Shown: positions 9,323 through 39,016 of the stretch, piece after piece
How positions within the stretch are numbered: position 1 is the stretch's first letter
How the letters are laid out: the number at the start of each line of letters is the position of its first letter
Assembly: GCA_951799425.1 (NCBI GenBank)
Contig: OX637401.1
Location: 21,118,001 to 21,182,000 of the forward strand
DNA: 64,000 bases
Direction: 5' to 3'
DNA from: Ilex aquifolium
Lineage: Eukaryota > Streptophyta > Magnoliopsida > Aquifoliales > Aquifoliaceae
The notes under the pieces: generated by a model
Told to the model about the DNA's origin: nothing
What the model saw: the letters and a program-made list of their open reading frames with translations, nothing else
The model's database searches: none
Position numbers and translations under genes: made by a program

Positions 9323-9330
9323 GCTCTAGC

Positions 9331-10335
9331 TAGGGGTGCAACTTAGGTGGGTTGGCCGGGTTAGATAGTCAACCCTAGGTATATAATTTTCAATCTTAAC
9401 CCTAATCCTAACCCGAGTTAACTCGATGGACTCAACCCGAGCACTGCCCGAGTTTAATTCGGGCCGGCTCAGGTTGAATTCGGGTTTATAATTTCGGGCT
9501 GATTTCGGGTTATTTTACGGATTCAATTCGAGGTGAAACGGATCTGAGAGACGGATTTTGCATGCCCTTTCAGAACCACCCCTTGCAAAGCTTCCTTAGC
9601 AGATTTTGCATCCTCGATTCGACGGAAGTACACGAATGCAAAGCTTCGCGCCACGTAAGAGGCAATGCCGTCCAACATTGAATGTGTTTCCGGCTTGTCG
9701 GGGTCCTTTGGATTATGAATCGGTTTCATGAATTTGTTCGGCGGAGGCATTGTCGTAGAAAGAAACCCTAGAAAATATGGGAGGTTTGGAGACTGGGAAG
9801 GGAAATGAATTGTATTACGCAAGAAGAAAAAGGTATCTATATGTAGATATACGAAGGGGTGTGTGTGTGTGTGCAGGGAGGAGAGAGAGAGAAAGAGGGG
9901 CCTCTCGACGACAAGAAGAGAAGGAAAAGAGTAGATGAGAACGAAGGAAGAGTACAGACCAAAAGAAAAAGAACGAAGGAAGGTAAAAGGCAAGGAGAGA
10001 AGAGAAGGGGGGCAAGCTGGCAGATATGCATGGCTCTCTATAAGTGGATCTGAGAGTGAGAGTGAGAGTGAGAGAGTGAGAAACGGATTTGAGAGATTGA
10101 GAGTGAGTGAGGGAGGCGCAAACTTCAGATTAACCCTAGGGATAAAATTGTATTTATATAGTTATTAATTCGGGTTGAACCCGATGTCTCAACCCGAGAC
10201 CCGTCCAAATTGAATTCGGATTGAAATTTTTTGACTCAAGTTCAACCCAAGTATTACAAATTCTAACACAAGCCCTAATTTTTTCGGATTGGGTTCGGGT
10301 TGAAATCGGGTTAGTCGGCCCAAGTTGTACCCCTA
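9331..10335. mobile_element. Non-autonomous hAT-type transposon with captured gene fragment (Pack-type)
   Basis: 1005 bp. The ends are inverted repeats: TAGGGGTGCAACTTAGG on the left and TAGGGGTACAACTTGGG read from the right. TAGGGGTG starts are typical of plant hAT elements. A perfect 8-bp duplication GCTCTAGC flanks it (9323-9330 and 10336-10343), the hAT target size. Both subterminal regions are crowded with AACCCG/CGGGTT motifs in alternating orientation, as expected for transposase-binding zones. There is no transposase. The interior carries an FPA-like gene fragment on the minus strand, preceded by a CT-rich leader. Confidence 0.85.
9523..9750 (-). pseudogene. Captured FPA-like RRM gene fragment
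   Basis: A minus-strand open frame starting at 9750 encodes 75 residues beginning MPPPNKFMKP, then RSFAFVYFRRIEDAKSAK, which carries the RNP1-like core and following helix of an RNA recognition motif, then EALQG. This arrangement resembles the first RRM of FPA, the SPOC-type RNA-binding protein of 3'-end processing and flowering control. The first half of the RRM, where RNP2 should be, is missing between KPETHS and MLDGIASY, so it is internally deleted. After VVLKG the similarity ends and a stop follows. The frame is open further upstream into a CT-rich tract (to 9993) that looks like a captured 5' leader. It lies wholly inside a hAT-type element, so it is a transduplicated fragment. RRM assignment is firm; FPA over another RRM protein is recognition from memory. 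Confidence 0.7.
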
Positions 10336-10376
10336 GCTCTAGCTTGTCAGGAAGTGCATCCAAAAGATGGGCTTGA

Positions 10377-16169: not shown

Positions 16170-17625
16170 CTACTGATAATATTTTTTTAGGTACTCTGCG
16201 TTCCATGGATGGGCCAAAACTTTCCCCTCGGAACTCTGAATTTTGTAGGTGCCTGGTCTTACAACTTTCGTGACCGTATAAGGTCCATCCCAGTTAGATC
16301 CTAGTTTCCCTTCCCTAGAGTCTTTGGTAGACAGGATGACCTTTTTGAGGACTAAGTCCCCGAGCAAGACAGAACGAGGCTTCACCCTCGAGTTGTAGTA
16401 TTTGGTCATGCGACGCTTGTACTCTGCATTCCTGAGCATGACTATCTCCCTCTCCTCCTCTACCAATTCGAGGTTGATGCGGAGGCCTTCTTCATTACTA
16501 GAAGGGTCATGATGCTGGACCCTAAGGGAGTGTACCCCAATCTCAACGGGTATGACCGCCTCTGTCCCGTAGGCCAGGGAAAAAGGAGTCTCGCCCCGTG
16601 GGGCTCCTTGGTGTCGTTCGGTAAGCACACAGCACTCCCGGGAGTTTGTCTACCCATCATCCTTTCACACTCTCCAATCTGATTTTCAATTGCGGAGGAT
16701 GGTCCTGACGGTGACCTCTGCTTGCTCGTTTGCTTGTGGATGGGGTGGGGCTGGAGTGGGGCTGCTTGATCTGTAGGTCGGCACATAAACTGTTAAGGAG
16801 TTTGTTGTCAAACTGTTTGGTGTTATCACTCACGATGGCGTGAGATATTCCGAAGTGGTAGACTATATTCCTCCATATAAAGTATTTCACCTTCTGGTAT
16901 GTTATTCTGGCTAAAACCTCGGTTTCTGCCCATTTAGTAAAGTAGTCAATGACTATCACTACGAATTTGCACTGGCTCCGACTCACGGGTAGGGGACCTA
17001 GGATGTCGATCCCCCACATGAAGAAGGGTCATGGGCTCTGAATGGTGGTGAGCTCTTTAGGTGGCTGTCTGGGTACAGTCGCGAAGCGTTGACACTTATC
17101 ACACTTCCTGACGAACACTTGGGTGTCTCTGATCAGGCTAGGCCAGTAGTAACCTTGCCTCACTGCTTTGTGGGCTAGTGCACGCCCTCCCAAGTGATTT
17201 TCACATATTCCCTCGTAGATTTCCCTCATGACGTAATTGGCTTCCTCGAGGGTAAGACAGCGGAGAAATGGCAGTGTGTAACTCTTTTTGTAGAGTGTGT
17301 CGCGTAAGATGACATACCCGAACGCTCTCATCCTCAACTTTGTGGCTTCCACTGGATTGTCCAAGAGAGCGCCCTCCTCCAGGTAGGCTCGGATGGGTGT
17401 CATCCGATTGGCTTCCAAGGATGTACAATTAACATCGTCCTCCTCTGTCTTGAAGGTGCTTGGCTCGAACTGGTGGCCTGTCAGTGCAAGGGCCATGAGT
17501 ATGTTGGCAGACGCGAATTTGGCAAGGGCGTCTGCCATGGCGTTCTCCACTCGGGGCACATGGTGGATTTGGAAGCAGTTAAACCTTTTTAACAAAGCTT
17601 GGACCATTGACAAGTATTCTTGCAT
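16170..17625 (-). pseudogene. Tat integrase and end of second RNase H, disrupted
   Basis: 17625-17029 begins with the end of the second RNase H (HVPRVENAMADALAKFAS) and then the integrase zinc-binding region, with H-H-C-C spacing ending in CDKCQRFA. A TGA at about 17029 replaces the expected Trp before FFMWGIDILGPLP, the start of the DDE core (first Asp in GIDILG). The second Asp lies in IVSDN. Near 16790 the frame shifts, losing the glutamate region, and reading resumes at 16628 to the stop at 16170. The C-terminus has the GPY-like motif NWDGPYTVTKVV. Three frames are needed, so it is inactive. Confidence 0.85.
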
Positions 17626-17639
17626 TCTCTCCTCATTTG

Positions 17640-19507
17640 CTTCAAAGTCTCCCTTTACCTAGTTGACTATCAGTTGTGAGTCACTGTAGGCTGTCAAGTA
17701 GAAGGCTTCCATCTCCAATGCAAGCTTCAACCCTGATATGAGGGTCTCATATTCAGCTTAGTTGTTTGATGTAGCAAAGTGGAGGGAGACGACGTACTTC
17801 AGTGGAGTGCCATGGGGGCTGATCAACACTAGTCCCGCACCGCCGCCCTTGCTGGTGGTGGACCCATCTGCGTAGAGTCTCTAACCTGGTATAGTATATA
17901 GTAGTGAGGGCGCAGAGGGTTCAGGTGGAGTAGGCACAAGGGAGTCGGACGCCTCTAGTCTCAGAGTGTGGTCTCCCGGGGCCTGTGGAGTTGTCTCCGA
18001 GTCGTCGGGCCCTCTCGGAGTAGTGTCTAGGCTAGCCTCATAGTGGGTGAAGGCATAATGTATTGAGTAAGCGGGCACAGGGATGCGTGATACTTCCTCC
18101 CGGGACTCCTGCGGTGGGGTATACTCCCGGGACTCCAGTGGTGGCGTAGAATCCCGGGACTTCGGTGGCGGTGTAGACTCGACCAGGAAGTCCACAAGTG
18201 CTTATGCTTTGATGACCACCCTCGGCTGGTACTGCACATCGAACTCACTTTACTCGACAGCCCACTTAAGTAGTCGGACGGACACATCGGGCTTTCCCAG
18301 AATTCTCTTAAGTGGTTGAACTATAACAACCATGATGGTGTGACTCTAAAAGTAGTGGTGTAGACGCCTGGCGGCGGTGACAAGTGCGAGTGCCAACTTT
18401 TCAAGCTTTGAGTATCTTACCTCTGTCCCTCGGTATGCCCTGCTTACATAGTACACAGGCTTCTGGATACCTCCATCCTCCCGAACAAGGACAAAGCTCA
18501 CGGCAGAGGGTGAAGAGGAGAGGTAGAGATACAGGGTCTCTCTTGGTACAGCATGGGAGAGCAAATGTGGTGTGACGAGGTAGACCTTGAGCTCCTGGAA
18601 GGCCTCCTCTGCATCTGGTCCCCACTGAAAAGACCTGCGAAGGATTTTAAAGAAAGGCAGACACTTATCTGTTGATTTCGAGACAAACCTGTTGAGGGTC
18701 GTTATCCTCCCGTTAAGGCACTGGACTTCTTTTACCGAGGCTAGGGACTTCATCTCCAAGATGGCTCTGATCTTGTCTGGGTTGGCTTCAATGCCCCTCT
18801 TGTTGACCATGAAACCTAAGAATTTTCCTGAATTGACGCTAAAGACGCACTTTTCAGGATTCAGCTCCATCCTATAGGCTTTCAGTACATCAAAGGTCTC
18901 CTGGAGGTGCGTCACATGGCCTACTACAGCCATACTCTTTACCAACATATCGTCCACGTAGACTTCCATGGTCTTCCCGATCTGAGTCTCGAACATCTTA
19001 TTTACGAAGCGCTGATATGAGGCTATGACGTTCTTGAGTCCGACAGGCATCACCTTGTAGCAGTAGGTACCTTTCGGGGGTGATGAATGAAGTTTTCTCC
19101 TAGTCTGGAGGGAACATGCTGATTTGATTGTACCCGGAGTAGACATCCAGAAAACTCAAGAGCTCGTGTCCCGCAGTGGCATCAATAAGGAGATCGATGC
19201 GTGGGAAAGGGTAGTTGTCTTAGGGACAGGCTTTGTTGAGCTCCATGAATTCCACGTAGAAGAGCCACTTCCCATTAGCCTTCGTAACCATCACTACGTT
19301 GGATAGCCAGTCTGGGTAGGCTACCTCCCTTACTGACCCACTCTCAGTATTTAGATTCCTCAACTTCTGGTGGACGAGCTTGTACCTGGGATCGACATTG
19401 AGTCAGTGGGAGGTCACTTCGGGGTCGATGCCCTCCAGGTCTTCTTGGAACCAAGCGAAGACATCAATGTTCCGTCTGATGAAGCCTACTAGGTCGGAGG
19501 CTTGCTC
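17640..19507 (-). pseudogene. Tat reverse transcriptase and RNase H, disrupted
   Basis: The N-terminal third of RT (19507-19147) is readable only with stops. 19146-18346 is open and contains the polymerase core with YVDD in EVYVDDMLVKS, then thumb and connection, and the start of RNase H (KLEKLALALVTAARRLHHYF). Stops follow in the rest of RNase H. A linker (18195-17881) of proline-rich sequence separates it from the second RNase H, which starts at DGSTTSKGGGAGLVL and has stops at about 17759 and 17659. A dual RNase H arrangement is characteristic of Tat elements. Confidence 0.85.
18099..18179 (-). repeat. 27-bp tandem repeat in the RNase H linker
   Basis: Three copies of a 27-bp unit, each starting CCCGGGACT on the plus strand (18099, 18126, 18153). 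On the coding strand this gives three nine-residue repeats of the type TPPxESRE(Y/D). In-frame repeat expansion has lengthened a flexible linker between the two RNase H domains. Confidence 0.8.
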
Positions 19508-21717
19508 CTAGGAAAATGAGGAGCCTATATAGACTCTCATCTCTAGAAGGCTCTTGTCCACCGCTACTGGCCGAAGTTTTTCTGTTGGTTCCCCTCTCTC
19601 CAAGGTGGTGTCATCCCTCGGGTCAAGTACTTCGACTTGGAGAGTCTCGTGTAGCTTTCTAGCCCTTATAGAAGCCACATAGCACTCCCAGGCGAAGACC
19701 TGGCCTCCTCTGATCTCTCCAATTCCACTGGTGGTTGGGAAACGGAGGAGAAGGTGGTAGGCAGACGGCACCATCCTTAAGGTATTGAGGGCAGGGCATC
19801 CTAGAATAATATTATAGGCAGATGGACAATCAAGTACGATAAAATTTACCATTATGGTGGAACTCCTCGGTACTGTTCCTATTGTGACCAGCAGGGTGAT
19901 GGAACCCAAGGGATAAACCCTTTCCCCCGAGAAGCCAACAAGAAGAGTCCTGACAGGTTGCAATCTCTCCCTGCCTAGATAAAGGCTATCAAAGGCTGGT
20001 GCAAAGAGAATATCGGCTGAGCTGTCGCTGTCGACTAAGATCCTCTTAACCTGGTAGTCGGCTACCATCAGGGTTAAGACTAAAGGATCATCATGAGGGA
20101 CTTGGATCCCCTCGAGGTCCTTGTCTGAGAAGGTGATGACCTCTTCCTCCTCGTATCGAGGTGTCTTCGTTGAGAGAGAGTGATGTGACTCTGTCTGTCT
20201 AGCTTTTCGGGTGTGCGTTTTTCTGGCGGAGTTGGAGTCACCTCCTCCTCCTAACCCTCCGGCGATAGTTTGGATCTCTCCGAGGGGCTGTTGGCGCTCT
20301 CGATCCTCCTGATTCCGACCGGGCGGTGGAGCCTGTCCTCGGCCAGCAACGTATTGCCTCAGCTGGCCATGCTGAATAAGATCCTCGATCTGCCTCATTA
20401 ACTGGAAGCAGTCGTCAGTGTCGTGGACGTGGTCATGGTGGAAGCGACAGTACCTACTGGGATTTCTGTGGTTTGGGTCGGACTTCACTTTTTCGGGCCA
20501 GCGGAGCGTGGGGTCATCCTGTATCTGGAATAAGATGTGCTCCACCGAGGCGTTGAGTGGCGTGAAAGGCTGTCGTTCTCTCGGGGGTACTAGACTGAGA
20601 CGATCCTTGACAGAGACTCTCTCGGTTCTCTTTCTCTTGTTCTCCGCCACTCGCTTGTCTTCGCGGGTGTCCTTCCTTTTTTTCCCTCCTCGGGAGGACT
20701 CACCTCGATGGGTCTTGGTGACGTCCTCGGCATTCATGTACTTCTATGTCCTTGACAGCAGTTCGGGCATATTGGAGGGCGGCTTCTTGAGGACGGAGAA
20801 CATAAAGCTGGAGGAGCGCAAACTAGCAATAAAGGCGGCCAGGGCTACCTTATTGTCTGGCTCCTCGATCTGGAGAGCTTCCTTGTTGAAACGAGTGAGG
20901 TAGCTCCTATAGCTTTCATCCCGGTCCTGCTTAATGGTGAGTAGGTAGGTAACATGCTTCTGATGTCGGCGTCCCCTAATGAAGTGGGAGACGAAAGATT
21001 TACTCAGCTCCACGAAGGAGTGGATAGAGGAGGGTTTGATCTTCGCGAACCATTGTCGAGCAGACCCTTCGAGGTGGTGGGAAATGCTCTACACATGATC
21101 TCATCAGGCACGTTGTGGAGTTGCATGAGAGACTTATAGGTGTCAAAATGATCCAGAAGGTCTTTGGTACCGTCGAAGATCTCGATGACAGGCATCTTGA
21201 ACTTCGAAGGTAGAGGATAATTGACAATATCTAAAACAAACGGGATATCAGTGCATCTTACCAAGTAATCCACTGTCTCGGGTGTCTGTGCTTTAATGGC
21301 GTTGAGGACATCACCGAGCTGGTTTTGCACCTTCTTGATCTTCTCGTCTCATTGGTTGGGGACATCCTCCGTCGGGTCATTGTAATGGCTTTCATGATCG
21401 GCATACTGACTTTCTCCCTCATCCTTTTGCGTAGTTACATGAGGAGGGAAAACATGTGAGCTTCTTGCGCGCTGAGGAAGGACTCCTGGGCGAGGGGTGC
21501 CCGGGCGTTGCCTAGGGGCATTCTGGCATGAGGCTCCACGGTGGGGGGTGGCTTGGTGCCCAGAGTGGAGAGGTTGCGGTGCTTCTCTCGTCGGAGGGAG
21601 TGGTGCTCCTCCTACAGGCTGAGGGGCGACACCTTCCTGGGCGAGCATCAACTGAATGATTTGCTGGTTCTGGTTTACCACCAGCTGCATGGTCTGTAAA
21701 AGTTGTTGCCCGACCAT
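19508..21717 (-). pseudogene. Tat gag and protease, disrupted
   Basis: Gag starts with a Gln/Met-rich helix at about 21717 and a Pro/Arg-rich stretch. It then has the retrotransposon capsid region (PVIEIFDGTKD to WFAKIKPSSIHSF) and a His-rich pocket CRFHHDHVHDTDDC. The frame is broken by a TGA at about 21347, a one-base loss near 21072, and a TAG at about 20745. From 20737 to 19508 it is open and includes the aspartic protease. The protease active-site triad reads DSD (ILVDSDSSADILF) where the family has Asp-Ser/Thr-Gly, so a catalytic-loop glycine has been lost. The stop at 19508 separates it from RT. Confidence 0.85.
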
Positions 21718-35359: not shown

Positions 35360-35705
35360 ATGGCTCCTCTAATACCCTCTGAGATTCATGTTTTCAGAGC
35401 AAAGTATCAAATCCATGACGACGTTGAAGTTTGTGTTGTTGGCGCTGACAAGCCCCTGATTGGGACTAGAGAGTGCATCCCCATTCACACTCGAGCAATC
35501 ATAAAAAGTGGGGTTCATTTCCCCCTAGACCCTCTTCTTCTCTAGGTTCTCTCTGCGATGAAACTCTGCCCGATTCAGTGTTACCCCAACTTCTTCAGAA
35601 TCGTTATGGGTGTGGCTGCTCTCAACAATTGTTGAACCTAAGTTTGGGCCTTTGGGAGATTTTGTACTGCTACATTATCAAGTATGTTGGAGACAACTAC
35701 TACCT
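35360..35705 (+). pseudogene. Antisense ORF fragment of inner Tat element
   Basis: Starts at ATG 35360 (MAPLIPSEIHVF) and runs through SGVHFPLDPLLL to a TAG at 35543-35545. It continues in frame with VLSAMKLCPIQCYPNFFRIV to a stop near 35635, then shifts frame (LGLWEILYCYIIKYVGDNYY) up to the deletion junction. The pattern of a hydrophobic FPL-P stretch followed by L-P-Q-PN-R-V parallels the antisense ORF in the 12-22 kb element, so both belong to the same putative gypsy-transposon domain family. It is truncated, with one stop and one frameshift. Confidence 0.6.
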
Positions 35706-36574
35706 CGTTGTAGTTCTTTTATCGCCTTTACTTGGTCGAGATTTACCTCGACTCCCCGATGTGTCATCAAAAATCCGAGGAACTTTCCAGATCCTACCCC
35801 AAATGCGCACTTCGACGCATTGAGCTTTATTCGATATCTCCGAAGTATGTCAAAAGTTCTCCTTAGATCAGAGCAATGATCAGAGGCCCTTCGGCTTTTA
35901 ACTACCATATCATCGATGTAGACTTCCATAGTGACGCCCAACATGTGGAAAAACATTTTTGTTACCAATCTCAGATAGGTCGCTCTTACATTCTTTAGCC
36001 CAAAGGGCATTACCTTGTAACAGTATGTCCCTTCAGGTGTTATAAAGGAAGTCTTTTCCTGATCTTGCTCGGCAAGGGGGATTTGATGATAACCCCAGTA
36101 AGCGTCTAAGAAACTCATCCGCTCATGTCCTGCGGTAGCGTCGACTAACTGATCTATCTTCGATAAAGGAAAGCTATCTTTTGGACATACTTTGTTGAGG
36201 TCGGTGAAGTCGACACAAACCCTCCACTTTCCATTCTTCTTCTTGATGATTACAGTATTTGACAACCAGGTCAGGTATTGAACCTCTCTGATGGTTTGTG
36301 ATTCCAATAACCAAGCTACTTCTTCTTTTACCACCTTCTGGTGTTGTGGTGCCGACCTTCTCAACCTCTGTTTTACTGGCTTAAAACTGGGGTCAACATT
36401 CAGTCGATGGCATGCCATTTCTGGCGGAACGCCAGACATTTCATAGGTTGTCCATGCGAATACGTCGGAATACTCTCTTAACAATGAAATGAGTTCCTCA
36501 CGCTGTTCGGGTTTCAGGGAGACTCCAAAAAGGTAGTAATTTTTGTCATCTGTGTCTAAAGGTACTTTAGACAA
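35706..36574 (-). pseudogene. Reverse transcriptase of inner Tat element, truncated after thumb
   Basis: An open frame of almost 290 RT residues, with SNTVIIKKKNGKWRVCVDF, KTSFITPEGTYCYKVMPFG and the catalytic YIDD in EVYIDDMVVKS. It is intact through GKFLGFLMTHRGVEV and AIKELQ. At about 35700 the retroelement sequence ends and only nine foreign residues follow before the stop, because the DNA passes directly into the antisense ORF. The polymerase core is therefore preserved, while RNase H and integrase are gone. Confidence 0.85.
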
Positions 36575-36739
36575 GCTTTCGATGGTTCAATCTGATGGCG
36601 CCTCTTCTTGTTCTAAGGGTACTTTAGACAAATTTTTTGTAGTTTGGTTGGTTGGCACCTACTCCATGCCTAAAGGTACTTCAGGCCTGACCTCGAAAGT
36701 TCGGTCGGTCAATTCTTCCTCCCTATCGAGGTTTGGTTG

Positions 36740-37504
36740 CTATTTCATAGTTTCTGGAGCTGAGCCCCCGTCTCGCGTTTCTCCGTCATCTCTTCCCTTT
36801 ACCGAGGCCAGTAAACAAGTTCTCGAACTTACTTGGTCTCCTCGAATGTTCACTATTCTCTCTACCAAGGGGAATCTGAGCATCTGGTGGTACGTCGATG
36901 GTACCGCCTTCCTCTCGTGCAACCAGGTTCGACCCATAATAGCATTGTACACCGAGATCGTGTCCACTACAAGAAATTCGGTCATGACCCCAATAGGGCC
37001 AGTCTTCAACGGAAGTGTGATTTTTCCCCTTAGAAGGATAGTTTTTCCGCTGAAGCCGACCAACGGGGTATTTGCCGGCTTAAGGTCTTCTTGTTTGAGC
37101 CCGAGCTTCTGAAAGAGGTCCATATACATGATTTCAGAGGAGCTTCCTGGATCAATCAACACCCTATTTACTTCATAGTTTGCGATTCGGAGGGTAATCA
37201 CCAATGCGTCATTGTGTGGCTGATGTATCCCGATCAAATCCTGTTCGGAGAAACATATGGTCTTGACTACCTCTTCTAACTTCATCCTCTTACTCCTGAC
37301 CTCGGGGGATAATCTCAGCTGATAAACTTCTCTCTCATTGGCCACTCTCTGGATGTACGCCCTAGCAGCGTTATTTGTTTCCATTTGGGGATTTGTTGCA
37401 GCGTGGATCACATCGATCACACCTACTGCGGTGGTTTGATCCCCTTGAAGTTCGGCTCTTCCAGCATTAGCTCTATTATCTATGAACTGTGCAAGATGAC
37501 CCAC
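36740..37504 (-). pseudogene. Aspartic protease of inner Tat element
   Basis: A 254-residue open frame with the retropepsin-like core RVLIDPGSSSEIMYMDLF, a flap-region FSGKTILLRGKITLPL, and NAIMGRTWLHERKAVPSTYH, the usual downstream block in gypsy elements. The active-site tripeptide is DPG, seen in many plant gypsy proteases. Upstream, the zinc-knuckle-like CSYHRDVG is in another frame. The linker to RT contains three copies of a LSKVPL motif. Confidence 0.8.
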
Positions 37505-37784
37505 CTAGACCAACTCCTCCAAATGTTGCTTTAACGACCAGCAATTTTCGATCATATGCCCCCACATCACGATGATAGGAGCATCTGAAATTAGGGTTCC
37601 TCTTGGAAGGGTCCCCTATAAGCTTATTAGGCCACTTGAAATATGGTTTTTCCCTGATTTAAGTCAGTATTTTGCATATTGGCTCTTTGAACACCGTGTT
37701 TACCGCTACAAAAGGGGATTTCGAGGGAAACCCCTCTTTTTCTTTCTTCTTCTCAGCATCTCTATTCGGTTCATCCTGTTTATT

Positions 37785-39016
37785 TCAGCCGAATTGCTTT
37801 CTACCTGACTGCTCCTTCCCCGCGTATCTATACAGGTCGTCATCAACTTTTGCGTACTTCTCAATTCTCGCCATCAGCTCCTCCATATCCACGACAGGTC
37901 TTCTGGTGAGGGATTGGTACAAGGGGTTCTCCTTTTGCAATCCTATCTTGAAAGAAGCCACGACAATCTCTGGGTTACAGGCTTCAATTTCGTTCATCGT
38001 TTCCCAGTATCGATGAGCATATTGTCTCAAAGTTTCGGTGCTTTTCTTTTTCAGTGTCACCAGCATCCTAACATCTTTGGGTTGTCTGCTGCTTGTGATG
38101 AAACGAGCTGTGAATTGCTTAGGAAGTTGTGCCCATCCATCTATTGAGCCCCTCGGCAGACTATCGAACCACTTCATGGTTGACTCTCCGAGGCTGCTCG
38201 AAAAAATGGTGCAGAACAATGGCTCATTCTTTTGATAAATGGTCATAAGTTGTCGGTAATGTCGGATGTGGGAGGTCGGGTCTGTCTTCCCGTCATATAG
38301 TTTGAAGCTCAGGACTGTGAATTTACTCTCGATCCACCTGGTGAAGGGGGAAGACTCTGAACCGTCTCCGTATTCTCCTGTAGCTATTCTGGTTAGGTCC
38401 CTAGCTGACTTCTACTCAGGTCTTCTTAATCGGTTATTGAGCTCCTCGGTGATGAATTGTTTCCAGGGTTCCTTGTCTTGGCTTTGATGTCTTTTTTGCC
38501 TATACTCTTCTTGAATGATGTCCTCCTTTTTACTACGTTTCTTCTTAGGACTCTCCCGTCGGTTTTCTCTGCTACGCTTCTCCCTCTTGGTCATTTCCCT
38601 TAGTCTAACTTTTAATTCCTCGTTTTCTTTCCTCAGATCTCTCTCTCTCTCTCTCTCGCATAGGATTTCTTGAACATTTTGTCATGCGCGTCCAGTCGAT
38701 CCTGCAAGGATTGAACTAGTTTTGCCAAAGCGAGGTTCTCCCCCTCGGTACAGAGGGATTCGTCGCGGTCGGCATCTTGTTGGTTCTGGTGCTTATATGG
38801 CTTGAAACTTGATGAGGACAACTTGTAATCCTCACGTGGCTTGTCTGGACTTTTGCCCATGTCCATCCTAATGTCGCTATCGGACGGGAATGATCCTTTG
38901 TAGTTTGGATCGGAATCTTGCAGAGCAAAACTGCCTCCAAGTGAGCCGATGGCACTTTTTAGTCTCGACATTGGTTTTTTGTTCCACTTGATGAAGATTC
39001 CCACAGACAGCGCCAA
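37785..39016 (-). pseudogene. Gag of inner Tat element, frameshifted
   Basis: 39016-38633 opens right after the primer-binding site and ends in a run of Arg-Glu coded by a CT/GA microsatellite (38639-38658), where the frame breaks. 38594-38412 continues with a Lys/Arg/Glu-rich segment. 38246-37785 is the capsid domain (LGESTMKWFDSLPRGSIDGW). Slippage in the microsatellite is the likely cause of the first break. Confidence 0.8.
38998..39015 (-). other. Primer-binding site of inner element
   Basis: TGGCGCTGTCTGTGGGAA in element sense, two nucleotides after the 5' LTR. Confidence 0.75.

What the first reader, a model, noticed from the sequence alone, without database searches (positions are those of the whole stretch)
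9331..10335. hAT-type transposon carrying an FPA-like RNA-binding gene fragment
Seen: inverted TAGGGGTG ends, a perfect 8-bp duplication GCTCTAGC, CGGGTT-rich subterminal zones, and inside it a minus-strand frame with an RRM RNP1 core and a CT-rich leader. Known: gene capture is best described for Mutator-like (Pack-MULE) elements and less so for hAT. FPA controls poly(A)-site choice and flowering. Inference: a transduplicated 5' fragment of a 3'-processing regulator could yield antisense or competing RNA against its parent gene.
Basis: partly seen in the sequence, partly recalled or inferred. Interest (0 to 1): 0.7.

Follow-up and report, generated by a model that had tools for sequence, protein, structure and literature searches.

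The report
Jumping DNA carrying a flowering-gene fragment
A one-kilobase plant jumping element of the hAT kind has picked up the front end of a relative of the flowering-time gene FPA and moved it to new places; this is a clear case of an already known behaviour, and nothing shows that it does anything for the plant.

Summary
Window 9331-10335 is a 1005-bp non-autonomous transposon with imperfect inverted ends and a perfect 8-bp target duplication. Its arms recur in the host genome, and three longer units with the same arms and 8-bp duplications carry hAT transposase domains. Inside, 488 bp (9560-10047) is host DNA: upstream/leader sequence plus exon-1 start of an FPA-family gene, minus strand. 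Nearest relatives are a C7 gene with FPA-type RRM and SPOC domains and its partial duplicate (about 91.5% identical); the C11 gene with three RRMs and SPOC is much more distant. A second element, on C8, has the same fragment, junctions and 75-nt in-frame deletion but another target duplication: one capture, then transposition. Sister elements carry a PPR-gene fragment and a piece matching C2. This is a Pack-hAT family, a known kind. The 75-residue frame lacks RNP2 and shows no clear constraint. No 21-mer is shared with the first 10 kb read at the C11 gene, so small-RNA action there is unlikely; action on the C7 relative is untested.

The parts
9323..9330 (.). left copy of the 8-bp target-site duplication GCTCTAGC
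   Evidence: read directly; TIR/TSD scan
10336..10343 (.). right copy of the target-site duplication GCTCTAGC
9331..9347 (+). left terminal inverted repeat
10319..10335 (-). right terminal inverted repeat, 2 mismatches of 17 to the left one
9331..9559 (+). element's own left arm with CGGGTT-type subterminal repeats; about 9331-9530 is shared by many sisters, the last 25-30 bp by the C8 copy and few others; its inner part supplies the last residues and the stop of the frame
9560..10047 (-). captured host DNA, 488 bp: 297 bp upstream/leader and 191 bp of exon-1 coding sequence of an FPA-family gene
   Evidence: homology to C7 loci L010 and L011 begins and ends here
9526..9750 (-). 75-codon frame: fusion of exon-1 start, minus 25 codons, with element sequence; stop 9523-9525
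9677..9678 (-). join of the 75-nt in-frame internal deletion that removes RNP2; shared with the C8 element
10048..10335 (+). element's own right arm, with a GA-rich zone next to the capture
   Evidence: shared by sister elements

Best explanation
It is a non-autonomous hAT transposon of the Pack-TYPE class (a Pack-hAT). An ancestor acquired leader and first-exon DNA from a C7-type FPA-family gene, probably when a break inside or between elements was repaired from, or joined to, host DNA. A 75-nt piece of the fragment was lost at or after capture. hAT transposase from relatives with the same arms then mobilised the element, giving at least two insertions, on C8 and in this window on C11. It now behaves as a decaying passenger. 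Shown: ends, target duplications, transposase-bearing relatives, donor-lineage loci, one capture shared by two insertions. Inferred: the repair step, use of that transposase in trans, silencing, and absence of function.
For: TIRs plus exact 8-bp TSD. Arms shared with many loci. Three longer units with the same arms and 8-bp TSDs (C4 3573 bp and C6 2576 bp exact; C9 3866 bp one mismatch) contain hAT dimerisation-domain hits; the 577-codon C4 frame, the one scanned, matches Dimer_Tnp_hAT (4.8e-27) and hAT-like_RNase-H (6.2e-20). The captured segment matches C7 loci that have the undeleted RRM and no family arms in the 29.0 and 29.5 kb compared. C7B also encodes an RRM3-like exon and SPOC, best solved match FPA 5kxf. 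The C8 copy (TSD AAAAATAC) shares junctions, deletion and the 75-codon frame; 8 of 480 columns unite WIN and C8 against both C7 loci and none supports either other pairing. A protein search (49 of 49 candidates scored) found this exon only at C7A, C7B, C11 and in these two elements, other matches being 40% or less. Arm changes of WIN from the family consensus are 30 C>T/G>A against 3 T>C/A>G, the pattern of methylated-cytosine decay.
Against: By raw arm distance WIN's nearest sister is L018a (14.2%), then L017 (14.7%), then the C8 copy (15.2%); the tree joins WIN and C8 with support of only 0.669. The frame has stayed open in both copies at about 9% divergence, which can be chance over 225 nt but is also what weak constraint would give. 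The exact donor is uncertain: the element is 8.3-8.5% from both C7 loci, which are 5.6% apart, so the capture may predate their duplication or come from an unsampled copy. In the captured part the decay bias is seen in WIN (11 to 1) but not in C8 (5 to 6), and the arm consensus is itself rich in C and G.
Confidence: 0.93

Rival explanations
1. The captured fragment acts in trans: transcripts or small RNAs from the element lower expression of an FPA-family gene.
For: Of 470 21-mers of the window fragment, 91 match the C7A locus and 58 the C7B locus; of 512 of the C8 fragment, 93 and 108 (words of one or two letters left out). Arabidopsis FPA limits its own expression through early polyadenylation in its intron 1 (passages of PMC8116057), so its level is under feedback.
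Against: No expression or small-RNA data. No 21-mer is shared with L064, the 10 kb that holds RRM1 to RRM3 of the C11 gene (longest exact match 15 and 17 nt). C>T/G>A decay suggests a silenced element.
Confidence: 0.05
2. The 75-residue fusion peptide is made and selected, for example as a competitor of the parent RRM.
For: Frame open in both copies with the same stop; apart from the shared deletion no indels in the coding part, while the leader has several.
Against: RNP2 and the first half of the RRM are deleted. Lineage-specific coding changes fall on codon positions 1, 2, 3 as 1, 2, 3 in WIN and 2, 0, 2 in C8, and some change charge. WIN-specific changes are 6 of 191 coding and 12 of 289 leader columns, a small difference.
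Confidence: 0.03
3. The element is a Mutator-like Pack-MULE or another superfamily.
For: Gene capture is best known for MULEs (recalled; also stated in PMC2528002).
Against: 8-bp, not 9-bp, duplications and hAT transposase domains between the same arms.
Confidence: 0.01
4. Capture came from two tandem elements flanking the gene segment and re-excising as one hybrid, rather than from break repair with a template jump.
For: The route proposed for Pack-TYPE elements (passages of PMC8903248, and PMC13317346). L018 holds two family members in one orientation 19 bp apart. Short element motifs (GGATCTGAGAG, ACGGATTT) occur on both sides of the capture.
Against: No family arms were found in the 29.0 and 29.5 kb compared around the two C7 loci. 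Sister elements have native repeats of a similar motif, so the flanking repeats are not diagnostic either way.
Confidence: 0.4

Closest known systems
Pack-hAT elements of maize and rice (Gisby and Catoni 2022, PMC8903248; passages read)
   Same: non-autonomous hAT ends around captured gene DNA
   Different: different host; here transposase-bearing relatives and donor-lineage loci were located in the same genome
Hatvine-6 of grapevine (PMC2528002; passages read)
   Same: one hAT family with shared ends and variable interiors, often matching host exons and introns
   Different: Hatvine-6 members are described as sharing transposase coding sequence; this element has none
Ds2 and Ds-l4 elements of maize (PMC3260210; abstract and passages read)
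   Same: hAT ends, filler DNA occasionally from genes, about 1 kb for Ds-l4, decay of many copies
   Different: other terminal and subterminal sequence
Pack-MULEs (recalled, and mentioned in the papers above)
   Same: capture and spread of gene fragments
   Different: 9-bp duplication and Mutator transposase; not met here

Membership tests
hAT superfamily | 8-bp target-site duplication | tested here: met
   exact at the window element; 20 of 29 delimited elements exact, crossed control 2 of 812
hAT superfamily | short terminal inverted repeats | tested here: met
   17 bp, 2 mismatches; family consensus TAGGGGTGCAACT(C/T)GGGCGGG
hAT superfamily | moved by a hAT transposase | tested here: inconclusive
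   three units with the same arms and 8-bp TSDs encode hAT domains; mobilisation itself was not tested
Pack-TYPE (Pack-hAT) | non-autonomous | tested here: met
   1005 bp, longest stop-to-stop frame 212 codons; the two overlapping frames scanned match only RRM_1
Pack-TYPE (Pack-hAT) | host gene DNA inside, with its source lineage in the genome | tested here: met
   C7 loci about 91.5% identical over 480 columns
Pack-TYPE (Pack-hAT) | captured DNA mobilised with the element | tested here: met
   C8 copy with the same capture and a different TSD
Pack-MULE | 9-bp duplication | tested here: not met
   8 bp
FPA (Spen) protein | three RRMs and SPOC | tested here: not met
   the frame holds part of one RRM, RNP2 lost

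The most novel reading that the evidence does not exclude
A hAT family that repeatedly picks up host DNA has put a leader-plus-first-exon fragment of an FPA-family gene into at least two new places, and small RNAs or antisense transcripts from these copies tune the C7 FPA relative while sparing the diverged C11 FPA gene.
Probability: 0.04. Interest if true: 0.6.

Novelty: new member of a known kind. Interest (0 to 1): 0.3.

Why it matters
It documents a Pack-hAT family with its parts in one genome: non-autonomous carriers, transposase-bearing relatives, donor-lineage loci and a pair of insertions that share one capture. That makes it a usable case for asking how hAT elements acquire host DNA, for which more than one route is proposed. 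It does not change what is known about FPA or flowering.

Tried and rejected
Pack-MULE rejected on the 8-bp duplication and hAT transposase. C11 FPA as donor rejected: best DNA pieces 83% over 89 bp and 76% over 68 bp, and it is not among the 80 matches. Selection on the frame: counts too small, pattern near neutral; the high C8 leader divergence is inflated by a repeat tract that aligns badly. Flanking short repeats as proof of template switching: rejected, sisters have similar ones natively. L041's large interior looked like a capture but reads as a solo LTR with a 5-bp repeat GTATT (by eye). A literature search for the TIR letters listed nothing relevant. A search for papers holding FPA, SPOC, RRM and transposon listed 2, neither about this by title. 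L022's interior matched five other places at 86-91% over most of its length, not classified as elements or donors. No donor was found for the PPR piece (40 of 200 candidates scored). L035's interior was asked for and never answered; the genome was not searched with those of L023/L026/L034, L031/L032, L036, L037 and L029. Seven fetched places stay undelimited (L014, L027, L039, L040, L043, L045, L047).

Full report
What is there. Window 9331-10335 (G000:C11:21127331-21128335) is flanked by GCTCTAGC on both sides and has 17-bp inverted ends with 2 mismatches. A DNA search of the own genome gave 80 matches, with 40 of 1811 first-look candidates scored, so copy numbers are lower bounds. I fetched 37 of the matched places with flanks (L009, L012-L047). 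TIR pairs with flanks differing at no more than 2 of 8 bases were found in 27 of the 37, giving 28 elements plus the window's. Ten places gave none at that stage; three of those ten (L042, L044, L046) later proved to be ends of longer, transposase-bearing units, and seven stay unresolved. Own flanks: 20 of 29 identical, 7 with one mismatch, 2 with two; crossed flanks: 2 of 812 identical, 8 of 812 with two or fewer mismatches.

Superfamily. The hAT dimerisation family PF05699 matches at 150 places in the genome, 150 of 1396 candidates having been scored. Three of these lie beside unpaired arms of this family. Fetching the missing stretches gave complete units: C4, 3573 bp, TSD GCCCCAAG exact; C6, 2576 bp, TSD GTTTAAAT exact; C9, 3866 bp, TSD with one mismatch. 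The C4 unit has a 577-codon frame with the hAT dimerisation (E 4.8e-27) and RNase-H-like (E 6.2e-20) domains (the only one of the three scanned with Pfam as a whole). The arms therefore belong to a hAT family. That this transposase moved the window element is inferred.

Capture. Alignment with sister elements and with host loci puts the captured DNA at 9560-10047 (488 bp). Two C7 loci, at 19.24 Mb (C7B) and 19.59 Mb (C7A), match only this part and not the arms; no family arm was found in the 29.5 kb and 29.0 kb compared there. The captured piece is 297 bp of upstream/leader sequence (no transcript start is known) and 191 bp of exon-1 coding sequence. Both C7 loci keep 75 nt that both elements lack; the lost 25 codons hold the RNP2 strand (the RNP naming is from general knowledge). 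A protein search with the C7A exon gave 18 matches from 49 candidates, all scored: C7A 100%, C7B 95%, a C11 locus at 7.19 Mb 71%, then the window and C8 elements at 81-83% over their intact part, then other RRMs at 40% or less.

Which gene. C7B also has an RRM3-like exon (RRM_1 E 2.4e-06) and a SPOC domain (E 8.6e-16), about 17 and 20 kb from exon 1. Its SPOC end matches one distinct solved sequence at E up to 0.01, FPA 5kxf (E 3.3e-38). RRM2 was not found at C7B with recalled Arabidopsis probes. C7A carries the exon-1 region as a partial duplicate of C7B (2.8-kb and 0.56-kb blocks at 88%); no RRM3 or SPOC match was found in the 29 kb read there. The C11 locus has RRM1, RRM2, RRM3 and SPOC in order, so I take it as the canonical FPA gene. 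The element's fragment is far closer to C7 than to C11, so the donor lineage is the C7 gene.

History. Over 480 gap-free columns: WIN-C8 45 differences, WIN-C7A 41, WIN-C7B 40, C8-C7A 49, C8-C7B 47, C7A-C7B 27. Eight columns unite the two elements against both C7 loci, none supports another pairing, and the elements share both junctions and the deletion, so there was one capture. It may be older than the C7 duplication; faster decay in elements would give the same picture, so I give no date. Arm data are weaker: WIN is slightly nearer to L018a and L017 than to the C8 copy by raw distance, and the tree joins WIN and C8 with support 0.669. In the arms WIN differs from the family consensus by 30 C>T/G>A and 3 T>C/A>G changes; in the capture, WIN-specific changes are 11 and 1, but C8-specific ones are 5 and 6.

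Other captures in the family. Eight delimited elements carry one interior; its translation in L015, the one scanned, matches the PPR E_motif (E 2.7e-07), and 4 of the 8 have stops in it. A genome search with it scored 40 of 200 candidates, all at 91% or more over at least 203 of 205 bases; seven of the 40 are elements delimited here and the rest were not checked. L017's interior has a match on C2 (85% over 417 bases) and a weaker one on C3 (69% over 312); in the 2.6 kb fetched at C2 the match stops at the arms, so C2 is not another element. Its gene context was not settled. Other interiors were not traced.

Function. The frame ends in element sequence and has the same length in both copies. 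Lineage-specific coding changes number 6 (WIN) and 4 (C8), spread over codon positions; this neither shows nor excludes weak constraint. The protein would lack half an RRM. For RNA effects, the window fragment shares 91 and 58 of 470 21-mers with C7A and C7B and none with L064, the 10 kb holding RRM1 to RRM3 of the C11 gene; the C8 fragment shares 93, 108 and 0 of 512 (words of one or two letters were left out). Regulation of the C11 FPA gene by this element is therefore unlikely; regulation of C7B is possible and untested.

Known or new. Gene capture by hAT elements is in print: grapevine Hatvine-6 (PMC2528002, passages), maize Ds2/Ds-l4 (PMC3260210, abstract and passages), Pack-hATs (PMC8903248, passages). 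I read no paper whole. The finding is a well-supported new member of that kind.

Noticed in passing
L018 281-1510 (C2:58.30 Mb): Two family members in the same orientation only 19 bp apart, each with its own 8-bp duplication: the arrangement that the tandem-insertion model of capture needs.
   Followed up: no
L010, L048, L049 (C7:19.56-19.59 Mb): A partial duplicate of the C7 FPA relative with the exon-1 frame intact and no RRM3 or SPOC found.
   Followed up: partly
L011, L050, L051 (C7:19.22-19.24 Mb): FPA-family gene with RRM1, RRM3-like and SPOC but no RRM2 found; about 17 kb between exon 1 and the next exon recognised.
   Followed up: partly
L041 322-1731: A family member whose extra interior reads by eye as a solo LTR with a 5-bp repeat GTATT.
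   Followed up: no
L015, L018, L019, L020, L025, L030, L038: A subfamily whose interior is a PPR E-motif gene fragment; the fragment occurs at 40 or more places at 91% or more.
   Followed up: partly
window 17029-20743 and 35678-38411, minus strand: Frames that look by eye like Ty3/gypsy retrotransposon polyprotein pieces; no family search was run on them.
   Followed up: no
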